Below, one piece after another: positions 43,460 to 50,460 of a DNA stretch of 60,902 nt (position 1 is the first letter of the stretch; each line of letters starts with the position of its first letter). A model generated the notes under the pieces. It made no database searches, had not been told where the DNA came from, and saw only the letters and a list, made by a program, of their open reading frames with translations. The stretch is from the NCBI GenBank assembly GCA_021297855.1, contig JAJTHM010000007.1, positions 1 to 60,902 of the forward strand, in the 5' to 3' direction. This DNA comes from Sphingobacteriales bacterium. GTDB taxonomy: Bacteria; Bacteroidota; Bacteroidia; Chitinophagales; JADJOU01. Made by a program: the position numbers and the translations under genes.

Positions 43460-43532
43460 GGTGCGGTAGCTCAGATGGTAGAGCAATGGACTGAAAATCC
43501 ATGTGTCGGCGGTTCGATCCCGCCCCACACCA
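43460..43532 (+). tRNA. tRNA-Phe (GAA)
   Basis: A 73-base cloverleaf. Acceptor 5' strand GGTGCGG pairs with CCACACC at 43525-43531, with one C-A mismatch at the fifth pair. D arm GCTC/GAGC (43469-43484), anticodon stem ATGGA/TCCAT with GAA at 43493-43495, T arm GGCGG/CCGCC around TTCGATC, discriminator A at 43532, CCA not encoded. Followed by a terminator hairpin and by partial copies of its own 3' half. Confidence 0.95.
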
Positions 43533-43544
43533 CTTCCAATTTTT

Positions 43545-43577
43545 ATCCTCAACTTTTATAGTTGGGGATTTTTTTTT
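43545..43577 (+). terminator. Rho-independent terminator after tRNA-Phe
   Basis: Stem ATCCTCAAC (43545-43553) with GTTGGGGAT (43561-43569), one G-T wobble, then a run of T. A degraded copy lies at 43685-43715. Confidence 0.85.
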
Positions 43578-43604
43578 GACTGAAAAGCAATGTGTCAACG
43601 GTTC

Positions 43605-43654
43605 CCTGTCTGACGACGAGGCAGGCCTGTATGCTTGAACGCAGTTCAGGCAGG
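43605..43654. repeat. Palindromic repeat insertion in T loop of pseudo-tRNA unit 2
   Basis: A 21-base unit starting CCTGTCTGACGACG and ending AGGCAGG, followed by a 29-base variant that also starts CCTGT and ends CAGG. Both fold as hairpins with CCTG/CAGG ends. They sit exactly between GGTTC and GATCC of the tRNA T loop. Confidence 0.7.
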
Positions 43655-43742
43655 GATCCCGCCCCACACCACTTCACAATTTTTATCCTCGACTCTTTTG
43701 TTGGGGATTTTTTTTGACTGAAAAGCAATGTGTCAACGGTTC

Positions 43743-43805
43743 CCTGTCTTACGATCAGGCAGGCCTGTCTTACGATCAGGCAGGCCTGTCTGACGACGAG
43801 GCAGG
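43743..43805. repeat. Three tandem 21-base palindromic units
   Basis: Three head-to-tail copies at 43743, 43764 and 43785. The first two share the centre TACGATC and the third has GACGACG, identical to the unit at 43605. Each has CCTGTCT and AGGCAGG arms. A REP-like repeat family is the likely explanation. Confidence 0.75.
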
Positions 43806-43814
43806 CTTGAATGC

Positions 43815-43848: not shown

Positions 43849-43985
43849 TTAAGGTTCTTAATGAGTGACTTCTATCCTAAAAATTGGAGTAATGGACATT
43901 GGTGGAGGTGATTTTTAGCATTTATCATTCGAAATTCCGATTTTTTAAGTTATCTTTAAATTTTAAAATCCTAATATTTAGACCT

Positions 43986-44294
43986 ATGGCTTCTAAAACA
44001 GCAGCGCACATTCTTGGTTCCTCCCTTAACCTTCTAAGTATCTGCCTTATAATTTTGACTTCTATACATCTGACTAAGAGTTCTCAACAACATTTAATCG
44101 ATGAATTAACTTGTGTTCTAGCTTTTATATTAACTGCTACCTCGATATTGTCATTTAATTCCATCCGTAAAGATAATTTGAACCATGAGCGCTATGCTGA
44201 ATACTTATTTATGGGATCCATAATAGGAGTTTTAGGAATAGTAATTTACATTGTACTCTATTTCTGGATGACAGGAACTATTCCTTTCAATTAG
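43986..44294 (+). CDS. Small three-helix membrane protein
   Basis: About 102 residues from ATG 43986, with three hydrophobic helices (ILGSSLNLLSICLIILTSI, LTCVLAFILTATSILSF and IIGVLGIVIYIVLYFWM). No family is recognised. It lies between the tRNA-derived repeats and the C39 remnant and ends one base before that remnant's inferred 3' border. The real start could be the earlier upstream codon at 43899, but the ATG at 43986 gives a cleaner helix. Confidence 0.55.
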   Translation: MASKTAAHILGSSLNLLSICLIILTSIHLTKSSQQHLIDELTCVLAFILTATSILSFNSIRKDNLNHERYAEYLFMGSIIGVLGIVIYIVLYFWMTGTIPFN

Positions 44295-44513
44295 AATGCA
44301 TACTTAGGATAGTCTCTGCCGCTCGACTTACCCCTTCGTGACCCGTATAGCTCAGTTCCCTTAAAAACTTACCATCAAAGGTCTGCCCATACCACTTGGC
44401 TATCATACTGAGGCAGAGCCTGTCCGCCATACTTGTCCGCCTCTGGAGGAGGAGGATAGCTCGCAGTCCATCTGATCTCGCTGGGGAAAGTATGGGAAAG
44501 AAATAGGTGTCAA
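44295..44513 (-). pseudogene. Remnant of a C39-peptidase ABC exporter (LanT-type) N-terminus
   Basis: Read on the minus strand, the segment gives FPYFPQRDQMDC and, 47 bases further on in another frame, CLSMIAKWYGQTF, then FLRELS and EGVSRAAETI. These match the C39 cysteine-protease domain that begins peptidase-containing ABC exporters (DCGPxCLxMIAKYYG ... LRELS ... REGVS ... AAE). Catalytic Cys in QMDC is kept, but a 38-base-net repeat insertion shifts the frame and the coding sequence stops at AETI, so only ~60 codons remain. Not detected as an ORF, found by reading the gap. It directly follows the permease gene of the lanthipeptide cluster. Confidence 0.7.
44417..44462. repeat. Palindrome-like repeat inserted in the C39 remnant
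   Basis: On the plus strand it starts CCTGTCCGCCATACTTGTCC and ends with a GGAGGAGGA purine run. It begins with the same CCTGTC as the palindromes near tRNA-Phe and breaks the frame between the two conserved Cys of the C39 domain. Confidence 0.5.
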
Positions 44514-44549: not shown

Positions 44550-45308
44550 TTATAGCTTTTTTTTATTAAATTTTTTATCAACTAAGCAATTAATTGCAAA
44601 TATACCTAATCCAAATATCGCTATACTAATTATTATAAAATCTAAATAATTTTCTTTATTAGTAAAGTTATAAATTATATTTGAAGGATATGATATTGGA
44701 TAATAGATTGAAACATTTTTTAGAGCAATAAATAAATTTACCATTGTCATAAAAACAAAAAGAACTAAAGGATAAATTATACTTTGAACCCAAATTGTAA
44801 CTAAAGAGTAAATAATAATTATTCCCAAAGAACCTAAAAATATAAGTAAGACCATTATAAATAGGTTTGGATTAGTGAAATTTATTAAAACCTTGAATTC
44901 TGGTCTTGTTACTTTCAATAGAAGCATCACAAATATTCCATAGAAAATCAATACTACGTTTGAAAGCAAATTATATATTAGTAAAAGTGTAAATTTATTA
45001 TTCAAAATTGTTGTTCTCCTAATTCCCATTGAAAACATATTTTTCCAATTATTTGTATAATTCTCAACACCAAATACTGAATAAACTAATAAAATACAAT
45101 TTATTGGTAAAAACATTAATGACCAAGTATCTACTAAGTCAATAAAAAATGGAAGCCAAACATCATTAGGGAAATTTTTAGCGTCACGAATAAAATAACT
45201 AGAGGAAATGAGAAGTACTACTAATAATGGAAAGAGAAGTAAAACCTTGAGACTGACAAAAGATTTATTTTTTAGAATCTCAGCTTTTAAAATGTTTATT
45301 TGTATCAT
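44550..45308 (-). CDS. ABC-2-type permease of the lanthipeptide cluster (immunity-like)
   Basis: A 252-residue inner-membrane protein with about six helices (first near residues 22-42, FVSLKVLLLFPLLVVLLISS). The polar loop ENYTNNWKNMFSMGIRR resembles the EpiE/MutE type permeases that pump lantibiotics out of the producer membrane. It starts 2 bases after the ATPase stop, so translation is coupled. It has no catalytic residues. Very AT-rich like its neighbours. Producer self-protection is inferred from position and topology. Confidence 0.75.
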   Translation of the reverse strand: MIQINILKAEILKNKSFVSLKVLLLFPLLVVLLISSSYFIRDAKNFPNDVWLPFFIDLVDTWSLMFLPINCILLVYSVFGVENYTNNWKNMFSMGIRRTTILNNKFTLLLIYNLLSNVVLIFYGIFVMLLLKVTRPEFKVLINFTNPNLFIMVLLIFLGSLGIIIIYSLVTIWVQSIIYPLVLFVFMTMVNLFIALKNVSIYYPISYPSNIIYNFTNKENYLDFIIISIAIFGLGIFAINCLVDKKFNKKKL

Positions 45309-45310
45309 AT

Positions 45311-46213
45311 TTAGTCGTTTTTTGTAAATTTTAAGAATACACTTTCTAAATTGTTTGATTCAGTTGAAATATCCCTGATTTCAATATTATTGTCCACTAA
45401 TTGCTTTATTAGTTTATTTAGTATTTTGTTATCCACTAATTTATAGGATATAATACTATCATCAGTTGAAAACGGCTGAAGATTAAAAACTTTATTAATT
45501 ATATTAATAGTGTTTTGATTATTATTTGTTTTTAATTTTAATTCAACCTTTTGATTTAAAAACAAATCAGAAATTTTTCCATTATATTGAGATTGACCAT
45601 TATTTATAATAGCTAGTTCTGAAATTATTTTCTCAATTTCAGATAATAAATGACTTGATAAAAAGATAGAAATTCCAAAAGATTTATTTAAATTGAAAAT
45701 TAAATTTCTTATATCAATTATACCATGAGGGTCTAATCCATTTGTTGGTTCATCTAGTATCAATATTTTTGGTTCGTTTAAAAGTGCATTAGCGATTGCT
45801 AGCCTTTGTTTCATGCCAAGAGAAAGCTCATTTGTTTTCAATTTTCCGTCTAACCCAACTATCTCTAAGTATTTAGGTATATTTTTTATAGGTATATTGC
45901 AATATAACTGTTTAATTTTTAAATACTCAAATAAAGTTAGATTTGGATATAAAGTAGGCATCTCTACAAATGCACCAATTTGACTAAGAATTTCATTTTT
46001 GTTATAATACAAATCTTTATTAAAAATAAATACTTTTCCGGGAGGTACAGGATAAAGCCCAAGTATAATTTTTATTAAAGTTGTTTTTCCCGCTCCATTT
46101 GGTCCAATTAGTCCGAAAATAGAATCGGACGACATATTTAAGTTAAATGAATCAAATAATGTTTTGCTTTTATTGTACTGGTAGAAGAGGTCACGTATTT
46201 CTATTATATTCAT
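45311..46213 (-). CDS. ABC transporter ATPase of the lanthipeptide cluster
   Basis: A 300-residue ATP-binding subunit. Walker A GPNGAGKT, signature ELSLGMKQR and Walker B ILILDEPTNGLDP are all intact. The overall form, with an extra C-terminal domain of about 80 residues, matches BcrA/EpiF/MutF-type immunity ATPases. It energises the permease encoded next. It starts 7 bases after lanM on the same strand. Very AT-rich codon use sets it apart from core genes such as uvrB. Confidence 0.88.
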   Translation of the reverse strand: MNIIEIRDLFYQYNKSKTLFDSFNLNMSSDSIFGLIGPNGAGKTTLIKIILGLYPVPPGKVFIFNKDLYYNKNEILSQIGAFVEMPTLYPNLTLFEYLKIKQLYCNIPIKNIPKYLEIVGLDGKLKTNELSLGMKQRLAIANALLNEPKILILDEPTNGLDPHGIIDIRNLIFNLNKSFGISIFLSSHLLSEIEKIISELAIINNGQSQYNGKISDLFLNQKVELKLKTNNNQNTINIINKVFNLQPFSTDDSIISYKLVDNKILNKLIKQLVDNNIEIRDISTESNNLESVFLKFTKND

Positions 46214-46220
46214 TCGTTTT

Positions 46221-48974
46221 TTATTTAAATTCTAAAATTGATTCTGATTTGTTAAGTGATAAATTTATTAATGTATAACACAATCCTCCAATTCCAGTAA
46301 AAAGTTCAACTGGTAAAAAACTGTATTCATATCCTGGATTAAAATTTTTCTTTGAAACACTGAAATAGAAATTATTTTTTAAAATTTCAAAGTCACATTT
46401 TTGCAAAAAATTTAGCTGATATAGTTTTTGAGCAATAAGTATATTTCCACTATCCCCATGACATAAACAATCATTTTTATTAAAACAATTATTAATAAAA
46501 TAATTTATACCTCTAAGTACATCGATTGAATAATCTTCATCTTTAGTCAAATTATATATTAGAGCCCTAGAAAATATAATGCCGGGTGTTCCATTACACC
46601 AACCTTCATGATATGAATAACTTGAATCTAATGACCAAGAACCATTTGAATTGTCGAAAAAAGTATTTTCGTACTTAACTAATTTTTTAATCTCATGTAA
46701 CAATTCTGAATTATCAATTATATTCAGATTTATTAAATTTGAAAACGCATAAGCGATTCCAGCTGCACCATGTGCAAAGCCTATTTTTAAACTATTTGAA
46801 TTTATAGCAATATTGATTTCAAATTTAACTTTACTGTATATTTTATGAAGAATTTGATCTACAATGTCTAAATTTAAAGAATGAGATCTTATCTTAGTAA
46901 AACACATTATATCGCCACATAAACCATTAAGTAATCCAATATCATTTTGCAATTTAATTTCATCATAAACTAAAATCAAGTATTTTATTTTTTTAATAAA
47001 CCAATCAATCTTACCAATGTTGCTGTCTTTCATTTTATCCAACATAAAGAGATACTCTGTAATTCCACCATTAAAAATACCAGTTTCTGGTCTAAAAAAA
47101 TTAACAGTAACATTGTTTAGATAAATTCTTTCAAAGTAAGAGCTAAAAATCTTTTCTTTAATGCTTGCAAATTTAAGATCTTCTGATTTTGTATATTCCT
47201 GAAATAAATATAACAAACCGCCAAGTCCTGAATAAATAAAAGGACTAATTGGATAAATTTGCATCATTCTTTCTTTCTCGTCAAATGTTGAAAACCAACC
47301 AATACTATTTTGTTCAGATATTGAATTCTCAATTATTATATTGAAAATATCACTAATTTTTTGGTTTAAATCAAATTTACGGACTTTCTGTTTTGAATTA
47401 TCTTCTGAGTTTGTAACTAGGTTGTTTTTTGTAAGTAACTCTTTAATAATCTTAATTTGAAAATCTAGATCTTCCATACCAAGCGAATCAATTTTATCTT
47501 TTACAATAGCTATATTTTTTTTATTGAAAAAATTGTGATAAATTTTATTGTTTGAATGTAGATTTTTAGAGTTTAGATATGTGTAGAAATATGGAATGTC
47601 ATAATTAAGTAACTGAATGCACTCATCTGAAAATACAACTTTTAAAAGCTTATTGTATATTGGGTCGTTTCTAAATTGTTTTAACAATTTAACTCTATTT
47701 GTAGAATCCCATATATTAGTTGGATATGAAATATCACTTATAGCTTTACCATATTCTTCAGTATTCCTTAATAAAACTCTAATTTTAAGTTTTGATAAAT
47801 TAGAGAGAATGAATTTCTTAATATTTCCCTCATTATTTGAAAAATAATTATAAACTGTTTTAAATCCATAAATAATATGTTTTTCATATTCCTTAGGATA
47901 AATTTTTTTGCCATTAAATATAGGAAGATTTGAAGATTCAACTTTTTTACTAATTTCTTTTCTAACTGGCTTTGTCGTACCTTCTATAATAAATGATTTT
48001 TCGAAAACATCTTCTACGCCACTTAACCCACCTAGATTTACTTTAGAATCATCTCTTATTGTAAAAACGCCGAGTAATTGCGATTGCATAACTGAGATTT
48101 GCACTAATTTAGTTATTAGTTTATTTGATTCGTTTTTGAAAGGAAAAATATCATATACATTTATTGGATTTACTAATGTATCTAAATCAATCAAGACAGG
48201 GTCTTCGCCAGAGCAAATAATATTTTCATAGTGTATATCACACGAATTCATTATGTATAATAAAAATAAATGAATACCAATTTTTATATAGAAATTTTCA
48301 ACTTCTTCTGTTGTATTACATTCTTTATATTCGATTGACTCTACAAAATGAAAACATCCAAAAGATAAGATTTTTAATTTTTTAAAATTTTGTTTTAAAT
48401 CACTGTCTAATTTTGCTAACAATTTATTGTAAAATATTTCTTGTTCACCCGACCTTGGCTTATAATAAAGTGATTTTTCATTATTAAAGTTAATTTTTAA
48501 CACGCACTTATTTCCATTATGTAAATCTCCGTAGTTTGACTGAATTGTTTCAATTTTTACTTCTCTGTCATACTTAAAGTATTTACAAATTAGGTCTAAG
48601 CTACAATAAATATTATTGTATGTCAAAATTGTATTTTCGCCCCAGTTTTTTATTAATTTTATACAGTCAGAGTATAATAATTTGTGTTTATTGAAAAAAA
48701 TGAATTTCGTTTTTTTGTCTCTAATTATTGTGTGAATATATTTATTTGAAGGAATTTCTAGTTCGTTTAAATAGACTATCATACTCTTATGCAATATTTC
48801 AAACAAATTTTGAAATAACACTTCTAAAAATCCGTTTTTTAACACCCCCTCATCTACAGTTTGGTTTGTCTCAATAAGAATTGAAAGTACATAATTATAT
48901 TCTATAAAAACTTCATCACTAATAAAGTCAATATAATGTGCATTTTTGTTTTTTACTAAATCTGATATAAACAT
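46221..48974 (-). CDS. lanM: Class II lanthipeptide synthetase LanM
   Basis: A 917-residue bifunctional enzyme that dehydrates Ser/Thr and cyclises them with Cys. The N-terminal DUF4135 dehydratase has LYYKPRSGEQEIFYNKLL and the kinase-like SCDIHYENIICSGEDP followed by LIDLDTLVNP. The C-terminal LanC-like cyclase has H735 in GFAHGAAG and zinc ligands C793 (GWCNGTPG), C838 and H839 (CLCHGDSG). The length fits LanM. It acts in the cytosol on the precursor encoded just upstream. The AT content is markedly higher than in neighbouring core genes, suggesting transfer. Likely co-transcribed with the two ABC genes. Confidence 0.92.
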   Translation of the reverse strand: MFISDLVKNKNAHYIDFISDEVFIEYNYVLSILIETNQTVDEGVLKNGFLEVLFQNLFEILHKSMIVYLNELEIPSNKYIHTIIRDKKTKFIFFNKHKLLYSDCIKLIKNWGENTILTYNNIYCSLDLICKYFKYDREVKIETIQSNYGDLHNGNKCVLKINFNNEKSLYYKPRSGEQEIFYNKLLAKLDSDLKQNFKKLKILSFGCFHFVESIEYKECNTTEEVENFYIKIGIHLFLLYIMNSCDIHYENIICSGEDPVLIDLDTLVNPINVYDIFPFKNESNKLITKLVQISVMQSQLLGVFTIRDDSKVNLGGLSGVEDVFEKSFIIEGTTKPVRKEISKKVESSNLPIFNGKKIYPKEYEKHIIYGFKTVYNYFSNNEGNIKKFILSNLSKLKIRVLLRNTEEYGKAISDISYPTNIWDSTNRVKLLKQFRNDPIYNKLLKVVFSDECIQLLNYDIPYFYTYLNSKNLHSNNKIYHNFFNKKNIAIVKDKIDSLGMEDLDFQIKIIKELLTKNNLVTNSEDNSKQKVRKFDLNQKISDIFNIIIENSISEQNSIGWFSTFDEKERMMQIYPISPFIYSGLGGLLYLFQEYTKSEDLKFASIKEKIFSSYFERIYLNNVTVNFFRPETGIFNGGITEYLFMLDKMKDSNIGKIDWFIKKIKYLILVYDEIKLQNDIGLLNGLCGDIMCFTKIRSHSLNLDIVDQILHKIYSKVKFEINIAINSNSLKIGFAHGAAGIAYAFSNLINLNIIDNSELLHEIKKLVKYENTFFDNSNGSWSLDSSYSYHEGWCNGTPGIIFSRALIYNLTKDEDYSIDVLRGINYFINNCFNKNDCLCHGDSGNILIAQKLYQLNFLQKCDFEILKNNFYFSVSKKNFNPGYEYSFLPVELFTGIGGLCYTLINLSLNKSESILEFK

Positions 48975-49070: not shown

Positions 49071-49328
49071 TTAATTACTTATAGTTGCTTCTACTGCAGT
49101 TACATCATCCTGTGACACAATAGGACCGAATGGGTTGCATGATTTTGCTGTTTCACCATCAGCACTCACACCACAAATCCATCCACATCCTTTTCTGTCA
49201 GAACTAAACCATGAGCCTTTAACTTGGATTATTATCTCCTCATCATTTAATTCTCCTCCTTTAACTTGATTTAAATCAAAATTTGGGCTACCGATTAGAG
49301 CTTCTAAATTTTCAAATGATTTTTTCAT
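49071..49328 (-). CDS. lanA: Lanthipeptide precursor peptide
   Basis: An 85-residue peptide immediately upstream of lanM. The leader has a double-glycine-type site. One candidate is QVKGG with G24-G25; a second, better fitting the ELNDEE...VxG pattern, is QVKGS at G38-S39. The core that follows the second site starts WFSSDRKGCGW and has C48, C52 and C64, together with S42, S43, S55, T60, S63, S72, T77, T82 and S84 that could be dehydrated. Three Cys allow up to three thioether rings. No homologue is recognised, so the ring pattern is unknown. The start is ATG 49328. Confidence 0.8.
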   Translation of the reverse strand: MKKSFENLEALIGSPNFDLNQVKGGELNDEEIIIQVKGSWFSSDRKGCGWICGVSADGETAKSCNPFGPIVSQDDVTAVEATISN

Positions 49329-49411
49329 TTTTATAAATTTTATTTGTTTACAATTCCCTTTCGGGGGTATAGTTATTTCTCTATGACGAAAGAGGGTCGG
49401 TTTACATTCGG

Positions 49412-49609
49412 TAGTTTACTACCTCAGGCAGTATATGTCTAAAACCTGCTGCTTATTTCTATACCGACGTTTTAGCCGGCATGGCTTGCGCGCACGAGTA
49501 TAGCAGTTCTCGATAGTTTATACGACATACAGGTCGGTTTTTTTGGTTTTCTCCCCTTCTGCTTATTATACAGTTTGCAGTTTCGCTAGTTTATACCACA
49601 TAGAGGTGG
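49412..49609. repeat. Three hairpin-bearing repeats upstream of the precursor gene
   Basis: Units at 49412 (TAGTTTACTACC), 49514 (TAGTTTATACGACATACAGG) and 49587 (TAGTTTATACCACATAGAGG). In units 2 and 3 the stem pairs CGAC/GTCG and CCAC/GTGG differ by a compensating G-C to C-G swap, so pairing is conserved while bases change. They lie in the gene-free 49329-49765 gap. Unit 1 is the most diverged. Confidence 0.6.
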
Positions 49610-49712
49610 GTAAAAATAAGCCAAAAAATCTCAAGAAGCTTTCGCGAATACCCCCTATAGGTTTTTTAGCTTGTTTACTATAACAAAGATAGAGAGGGGA
49701 AATGACAAATGC

Positions 49713-49765: not shown

Positions 49766-50131
49766 ATGGATTTAGTCTTAGAGAATATAGTCAAATATAG
49801 AAAAGAAAAGGGATATAGTCATGAAGTTATGGCTAATCTGCTAGAAATAGCTCAACCAACATATTATAAAATAGAAAGTGGGAAAACTGAATTGTCACTT
49901 AAAAGATTATATCAAATTGCTTCAGCCTTAGAGCTTGGCATCGAAAAGCTAATTGGCATCGAAGCCAAACAAATGGTACATCAAGTAAAAGATACAGGTG
50001 TAGGTATTCAAAACATAGAAAACCAATACAATCACATGAAGGAATCCTACGAAGAACATATTAAGAGCCTCAAGGAAGAGATAAACTATTTAAGGACTTT
50101 GGTGCGCGGAGCATCAGACACAGTTGATTGA
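49766..50131 (+). CDS. XRE-family HTH regulator with coiled-coil tail
   Basis: A 121-residue DNA-binding protein. The HTH_3 domain covers about residues 7-62, with helix-turn-helix in SHEVMANLLEIAQPTYYKIESGKT and ELSLKRLYQIASALE following. The C-terminal ~45 residues (MKESYEEHIKSLKEEINYLRTL) are a coiled coil for dimerisation. It is divergent from the lanthipeptide operon and may regulate it or itself through the phased repeats just upstream. Target is inferred, not shown. Confidence 0.85.
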   Translation: MDLVLENIVKYRKEKGYSHEVMANLLEIAQPTYYKIESGKTELSLKRLYQIASALELGIEKLIGIEAKQMVHQVKDTGVGIQNIENQYNHMKESYEEHIKSLKEEINYLRTLVRGASDTVD

Positions 50132-50159: not shown

Positions 50160-50460
50160 ACCTCAAAATAAAGCTGTCGCACCTTTTTCCTCAGTCAGCG
50201 GAGGTTTGACCTCGGCTGTCCTCCAAAATAGCTCGAAAAGCGGACAAAAATGCTCGGAGCGAGAAGTAAAAACCTGCGCTCGCCGAGGTTTTTTATGCGC
50301 CGACCGAGGTAAAAGCACCGATAAGGGAGGAAAAAGCTCGGTCATCTCTATTTTTTTCTCGGTCGGCTGAGGTTTGACCTCCGCCGACCGAGCTTTGACC
50401 TCCGACCGCCGAGCTCAAAGGTAGGGGGGGGGTACCTCAGAGGTGGGGGGTCGCTGTGTT
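50160..50460. repeat. GC-rich palindromic repeat region
   Basis: Gene-free stretch much richer in G+C than its surroundings. It holds the palindrome GAGGT-TTG-ACCTC twice (50201-50213 and 50370-50382), each inside a longer stem. The best runs 50358-50392 with arms CTCGGTCGGC and GCCGACCGAG, 10 plus 5 pairs. GACCGAG/CTCGGTC at 50302 and 50337 forms another. A G9 and a G6 run follow (50424-50432, 50445-50450). It sits downstream of both flanking convergent genes. The remaining 50461-50578 shows nothing. Confidence 0.6.

What the first reader, a model, noticed from the sequence alone, without database searches (positions are those of the whole stretch)
44295..44513. Hidden remnant of a C39-peptidase exporter (LanT) at the end of the lanthipeptide operon
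Translation of the gap yields QMDC and CLSMIAKWYG, plus FLRELS, EGVS and AAETI, the conserved steps of the C39 protease domain, in two frames. A CCTGTC-type repeat insertion caused the frame break. The cluster therefore once had a leader-cleaving exporter and has lost it here. The peptide may now be silent, or be exported by a transporter elsewhere.
Basis: partly seen in the sequence, partly recalled or inferred. Interest (0 to 1): 0.8.

Follow-up and report, generated by a model that had tools for sequence, protein, structure and literature searches.

The report
Broken exporter scar beside lanthipeptide genes
Next to genes for making a lanthionine antibiotic-like peptide, this bacterium keeps only the first fragment of the export-and-cutting machine; the fragment looks like a copy of the front end of the cell's own bacteriocin exporter, which is itself broken elsewhere in the draft genome, so the peptide probably cannot be released in the usual way.

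Summary
On the minus strand, 44307-44513 encodes the start of a C39 peptidase domain in two frames (30.7 and 13.0 bits; best of 20 shuffled windows 10.3). It follows a class II lanthipeptide operon. In relative G167 an intact C39 exporter occupies that place.

The interpretation needs correction. The fragment is not recognisably the foreign cluster's own LanT: the lan genes have 23-25% G+C, the fragment 47-61%, and its main part is 85% identical in DNA to the genome's single C39 exporter. The same insert (50/51 bases) sits in a C39 fragment on contig C72, beside another bacteriocin-like precursor whose 5' region is also shared. So a foreign lan block lies between two resident-type ends. The insert is not the dispersed CCTGTC palindrome; loss of about 90% of the gene matters more than the frame break. 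The only other C39 exporter is split between contigs by an IS, with a 9-bp target duplication.

All three partial copies in this genome are 5' ends; 2 of 170 exporters elsewhere have a nearby partial copy, again only the 5' end, suggesting scars of cassette insertion at exporter genes. Mechanism inferred, not shown.

The parts
44463..44513 (-). C39 remnant, N-terminal piece up to and including the catalytic Cys codon; candidate TTG start at 44513, no ATG; 18/39 nt identical to the resident exporter upstream of ATGGACTGC
44410..44462 (-). insert-bearing stretch (net +38 bp against the intact gene, frameshift); 50/51 bases identical to the copy on contig C72
44307..44409 (-). C39 remnant, resident-exporter-like piece (72/85 nt identical to the C69 exporter); carries a short deletion (LAGLS) and ends at about codon 57
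44550..45308 (-). ABC-2 permease, lantibiotic-immunity type (LanE/G-like, weak)
   Evidence: G167 counterpart
45311..46213 (-). ABC ATPase, lantibiotic-protection type (LanF-like; 42% to G167)
46221..48974 (-). LanM, class II lanthipeptide synthetase (TIGR03897 474.8 bits, cut-off 304); LanC zinc-ligand motifs (recalled) present
49071..49328 (-). lanthipeptide precursor, 85 aa, double-Gly motif VKGG; core GWICGVSADGETAKSCNPF resembles G167 core GWVCTISGECNGGSCCNPF
49303..49536 (-). 5' region shared with the C72 bacteriocin-like precursor: 187/235 (80%), 93% without one 33-bp gap and one 1-bp gap
43460..43533 (+). tRNA-Phe; left border of the island that is absent in same-genus genomes
43899..44294 (+). 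131-aa membrane-like ORF, convergent, ending where the remnant ends; no family found
49766..50131 (+). HTH_3 (Xre-type) regulator, divergent from the lan operon

Best explanation
The feature is a dead 5' fragment (about 55 codons, frameshifted) of a C39 peptidase ABC exporter, lying as the last 'gene' of a class II lanthipeptide operon in the slot where a relative carries its exporter. Most likely it is not the remnant of the incoming cluster's own LanT but the downstream edge of the resident bacteriocin locus. A foreign, A+T-rich lan block (precursor core, LanM, ABC pair) came to lie between resident-type sequence on both sides: the promoter/leader region in front and the exporter's 5' end behind. 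A working full-length exporter once joined there would have processed and exported the peptide (inferred). In the present assembly that is gone, and the one other C39 exporter (C69/C65, with HlyD and an outer-membrane factor) is interrupted by an IS in its ATPase domain. So the lanthipeptide, if made, should stay uncleaved inside the cell unless some other protease and exporter serve it. Shown: the fragment, its relatives, shared ends, base composition, island absence in genus mates, IS split with 9-bp duplication. Inferred: order of events, recombination at the exporter 5' end, and loss of export.
For: C39 signal above controls. Slot occupied by an intact exporter in G167, starting 10 bp after the permease and followed by HlyD. 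Main part 72/85 nt identical to the resident exporter; of 30 residues, 26 match the resident exporter and 10-17 match each of 13 other exporters. G+C 47-61% against 22.9-25.1% for the lan genes; 2754-bp backbone windows range 29.6-39.9. Both ends shared with C72 (5' region; insert 50/51), no hit for the interior. Single C39 exporter in the genome, split C69/C65 with AATTATAAT on both sides of the IS ends. All three partial copies in the genome are 5' ends. Island absent in G001-G003: tRNA-Phe to the next large gene is 346, 595 and 278 bp against 7046 here.
Against: The N-terminal 13 codons match the resident exporter at only 18/39 nt, so at least that piece has another origin, perhaps another C39 gene. 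Fragments near 100 bp give weak base-composition statistics. The assembly is a draft (134 contigs): the C72-C69-C65 order is inferred from IS ends and target duplications, not from a read. A weak match to the exporter's C-terminal part at C41:18098-18250 (41% over 51 aa, one stop) lies beside other ABC genes and was not resolved.
Confidence: 0.6

Rival explanations
1. One reading: the cluster arrived with its own LanT (and HlyD), which decayed in place by frameshift and deletion; similarity to the resident exporter comes from gene conversion or a shared recent ancestor.
For: Same gene order as G167 with C39 exactly here; in G309 a C39 exporter also belongs to the lan cluster; the N-terminal 13 codons differ from the resident exporter.
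Against: G+C of the fragment, including the N-terminal piece (47.1%), does not fit the 23-25% lan genes; the main part is nearest to the resident exporter; same insert at the same site in another bacteriocin locus; only 5' ends are found, no middle or 3' pieces apart from one unresolved weak match.
Confidence: 0.25
2. A sharper form of the best explanation: no complete exporter ever stood here. Cassettes travel with just the exporter's 5' end and recombine by homology, leaving 5' scars; the lan operon was parked at tRNA-Phe as such a cassette.
For: All partial copies are 5' ends: 3 of 3 in this genome, 2 of 2 found beside 170 exporters elsewhere, 0 in the other eleven 60-aa tiles; a 97-bp repeat (92/97) starting at the ATG flanks the YhcG gene at C69.
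Against: Rare (2 of 170); no recombinase or circular form seen; simple tandem duplication or unequal crossing-over would also leave 5' pieces.
Confidence: 0.3
3. Assembly artefact: the real genome has an intact exporter here and at C69/C65, broken only by collapsed repeats.
For: Draft of 134 contigs; C69, C72 and C65 all end about 125-135 bp inside IS ends.
Against: The window fragment lies inside a 60.9-kb contig, not at an end; the IS ends at C69/C65 sit inside the coding sequence with 9-bp duplications.
Confidence: 0.07

Closest known systems
Pneumococcal blp bacteriocin locus with broken BlpAB exporter (PMC12150690, passages read; Son et al. 2011 seen only in its reference list)
   Same: A bacteriocin locus whose peptidase-containing exporter gene is inactivated while the locus persists; export may then depend on another exporter
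   Different: There the lesion described is a 4-bp duplication with frameshift in blpA and ComAB substitutes; here about 90% of the gene is gone, the fragment is resident-type beside a foreign lan block, and the only substitute is IS-split
Class II lanthipeptide clusters with C39 LanT (LanM, LanFE, LanT; G167 and G309 here)
   Same: Precursor with double-Gly motif, LanM, immunity-type ABC pair, exporter slot behind the permease (G167)
   Different: Exporter and HlyD missing, only a frameshifted 5' fragment
Grasp-with-spasm peptide loci of Taibaiella soli (L229) and HGW-Bacteroidetes-7 (L172)
   Same: A 5' fragment of the C39 exporter lies upstream of a second set of peptide genes that ends in the intact exporter
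   Different: Different peptide class; the intact exporter is still at the locus

Membership tests
Peptidase C39 (PF03412) | Profile score over the gathering cut-off | tested here: not met
   16.3 bits against 22 for the main frame; above chance by own HMM and by tblastn/blastn
Peptidase C39 (PF03412) | Catalytic Cys, His and Asp (roles recalled) | tested here: not met
   Cys codon present in MDC; the sequence ends at about codon 57, before the part that holds HWNQNHF in the intact gene
LanT / C39 ABC exporter | C39 domain, transmembrane domain and ATPase in one frame | tested here: not met
   tblastn of G167 LanT and the own exporter finds only the first about 60 codons here; the other clear hit is the separate LanF-like ATPase
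Class II lanthipeptide cluster | LanM with dehydratase and LanC domains | tested here: met
   TIGR03897 474.8 bits, PF13575 and PF05147
Class II lanthipeptide cluster | Precursor with double-Gly leader and Ser/Thr/Cys core | tested here: met
   VKGG and GWICGVSADGETAKSC, aligned with G167 and G309 precursors; by motif, no family model matched
Class II lanthipeptide cluster | Dedicated C39 exporter | tested here: not met
Dispersed CCTGTC palindrome | Insert in the C39 fragment belongs to the repeat family | tested here: not met
   28 copies of the palindrome genome-wide; the insert core has two copies only
Integrative element at tRNA-Phe | Integrase and att repeats bounding the island | tested here: inconclusive
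   tRNA 3' copies beside tRNA-Phe, island absent in genus mates; no integrase seen by eye among the island ORFs, no copy seen at the far end

The most novel reading that the evidence does not exclude
In Bacteroidota the 5' end of a C39 bacteriocin exporter acts as the recombination edge of exchangeable peptide cassettes. Each new cassette brings its own copy of that 5' end, keeps the exporter whole behind the newest cassette, and leaves a 5' scar behind the older one; the lanthipeptide operon here is such a cassette that has moved to a tRNA-Phe site.
Probability: 0.3. Interest if true: 0.65.

Novelty: new variant of a known kind. Interest (0 to 1): 0.45.

Why it matters
Loss of the exporter decides whether a predicted lanthipeptide is ever released, so genome mining that counts LanM genes would overcount producers. 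If the 5'-scar pattern is general, exporter fragments become a readable record of which bacteriocin cassettes a strain has carried, and show how one exporter is shared by successive peptides.

Tried and rejected
Dispersed repeat as the cause of the frame break: rejected. Close relatives of the LanM in named genomes: none, so no intact sister cluster could be compared; the order search gave 5 of 396 genomes including this one, the best other 26% identical. Of the four others, C39 is in the cluster in G167 and G309 and absent from the fetched flank in G115 and G181. RNA fold of the shared 5' region: not remarkable (z -1.6 and -2.05). The insert folds no better than shuffles. Plasmid records: no match to the fragment. 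Further precursors sharing the 5' region: only weak generic start-region matches. G034 has one more decayed C39 5' fragment (L097), but the query that found it was the C39 end, so it cannot count for the 5' bias. In one search, G199 (120-aa frame) turned out to be a frame-broken but otherwise nearly whole exporter, and the G263 case is cut by the contig end; G391 matches only over the first about 165 residues and was found by the same biased kind of query.

Literature: searches listed no paper whose title or shown abstract describes exporter 5' scars at peptide cassettes; only passages of PMC12150690 and PMC12715929 and the outlines with abstracts of PMC9897764 and PMC9241761 were read.

Full report
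The observation. The stretch 44295-44513 encodes, on the minus strand, the start of a C39 peptidase domain in two reading frames. Against the genome's own C39 exporter the match is E=1.8e-13 by tblastn and 85% over 95 bp by blastn. With an HMM from 13 exporters, the two frames are the two best hits of the whole six-frame window, 30.7 and 13.0 bits; the best of 20 block-shuffled windows was 10.3. Pfam alone stays under its cut-off, as expected for some 55 codons.

Its surroundings. Upstream on the same strand lie a permease, an ATPase, LanM and an 85-aa precursor with a double-Gly motif. In G167 the order is precursor, LanM, ATPase, permease, C39 exporter, HlyD, so the fragment lies in the exporter slot. 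G309 has exporter and HlyD in the cluster too, in another order; G115 and G181 have no C39 in the flank fetched. LanM relatives are rare: 5 of 396 genomes of the order, this one included. Nothing of the exporter's membrane part, its ATPase part or HlyD is left in the window. The island lies between tRNA-Phe and a very large gene (a gliding-motility-type protein by its C-terminal end, label recalled); the distance is 7046 bp here and 278-595 bp in three of the four genus mates (the fourth, G004, was not measured). None of the four genus mates has a C39 or LanM match.

Where the fragment comes from. Downstream of the codons ATGGACTGC it is 72/85 nt identical to the resident exporter, upstream only 18/39 (Fisher p=2e-5), so it looks mosaic. 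Its G+C is 47-61%, that of LanM, ATPase and permease 22.9-25.1%, below the 29.6-39.9 of 2754-bp backbone windows. It carries an insert (net +38 bp) that has one other copy in the genome, on C72, 50/51 identical, in another C39 5' fragment at the same codon. That C72 fragment follows a bacteriocin-like precursor and a gene resembling CPBP proteases (weak), and the C72 precursor shares 187/235 bases of its 5' region with the lanthipeptide precursor. Between these two shared ends nothing matches. The simplest reading is a foreign lan block between resident-type ends.

The only other exporter. PF03412 finds one gene in the genome, on C69. It is cut at about codon 660 by an IS end; its C-terminal part, followed by a PD-(D/E)XK gene, HlyD and an outer-membrane factor gene, is on C65. 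AATTATAAT stands on both sides of the IS ends, and AATTGATAC likewise joins C72 to C69. So the three contigs are probably one bacteriocin export locus, and the exporter is interrupted in the assembly. On C69 a second 5' fragment, 92/97 identical to the intact gene from its ATG, lies upstream of a YhcG-type nuclease gene, with a ParE-type gene before it.

A wider pattern, weakly supported. All three partial exporter copies in this genome are 5' ends; searches with the membrane part and the ATPase part found no others except one unresolved weak match at C41. I then scanned 176 loci (this genome not among them) with 170 distinct full-length exporters for partial copies of any of twelve 60-aa tiles, counting only matches in open frames under 250 aa that do not reach a contig end. 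Two loci had one, both of the first tile: Taibaiella soli (L229) and HGW-Bacteroidetes-7 (L172); the other eleven tiles gave none (first seen, where 2 of 80 loci had one and three internal segments gave 0 of 80 each). In L229 the fragment directly follows a grasp-with-spasm gene set and the intact exporter follows a second, shortened set; in L172 grasp-with-spasm genes lie between fragment and exporter. This suggests scars of insertion at the exporter's 5' end. It is rare (2 of 170), the mechanism is not shown, and tandem duplication could give the same picture.

Function. Without the C39 exporter the leader would not be removed and the peptide not exported by the usual route; this follows from what is known of the family (recalled), and was not tested here. 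Pneumococcal blp loci are a known parallel, with a substitute exporter (PMC12150690, passages). Here the immunity-type ABC pair remains, so the strain may be a protected non-producer (inference).

Verdict.

Noticed in passing
window 43460-43814: tRNA-Phe followed by two further copies of its 3' half, with CCTGTC palindromes in the position of the T loop; in G002 a GIY-YIG gene is followed by a tRNA-Phe 3' copy with another palindrome at that position (L063 about 2097-2140).
   Followed up: partly
whole genome; window 43605-43805: The palindrome CCTGTCTNACGANNAGGCAGG has 28 copies with up to 2 mismatches, backward-read control 0; a Y1 transposase-like gene lies on C65 (L050 7248-7691).
   Followed up: partly
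L002 3220-3318 and 1613-2107: 97-bp repeat of the exporter's 5' end flanks a YhcG (DUF1016) gene, with a ParE-type gene upstream.
   Followed up: yes
L097 9838-9990: Decayed C39 5' fragment without the catalytic Cys in G034, between unrelated genes.
   Followed up: partly
L229 5720-5793 and L172 1628-1747: 5' fragments of C39 exporters beside grasp-with-spasm genes.
   Followed up: yes
window 49445-49612: The shared 5' region has a 33-bp stretch, absent at C72, that looks palindromic; and a repeat TAGTTTATACNACATA near 49516 and 49589.
   Followed up: no
window 50160-50430: G+C-rich stretch with many repeats of the kind CTCGGTCGGC at the right end of the island.
   Followed up: no
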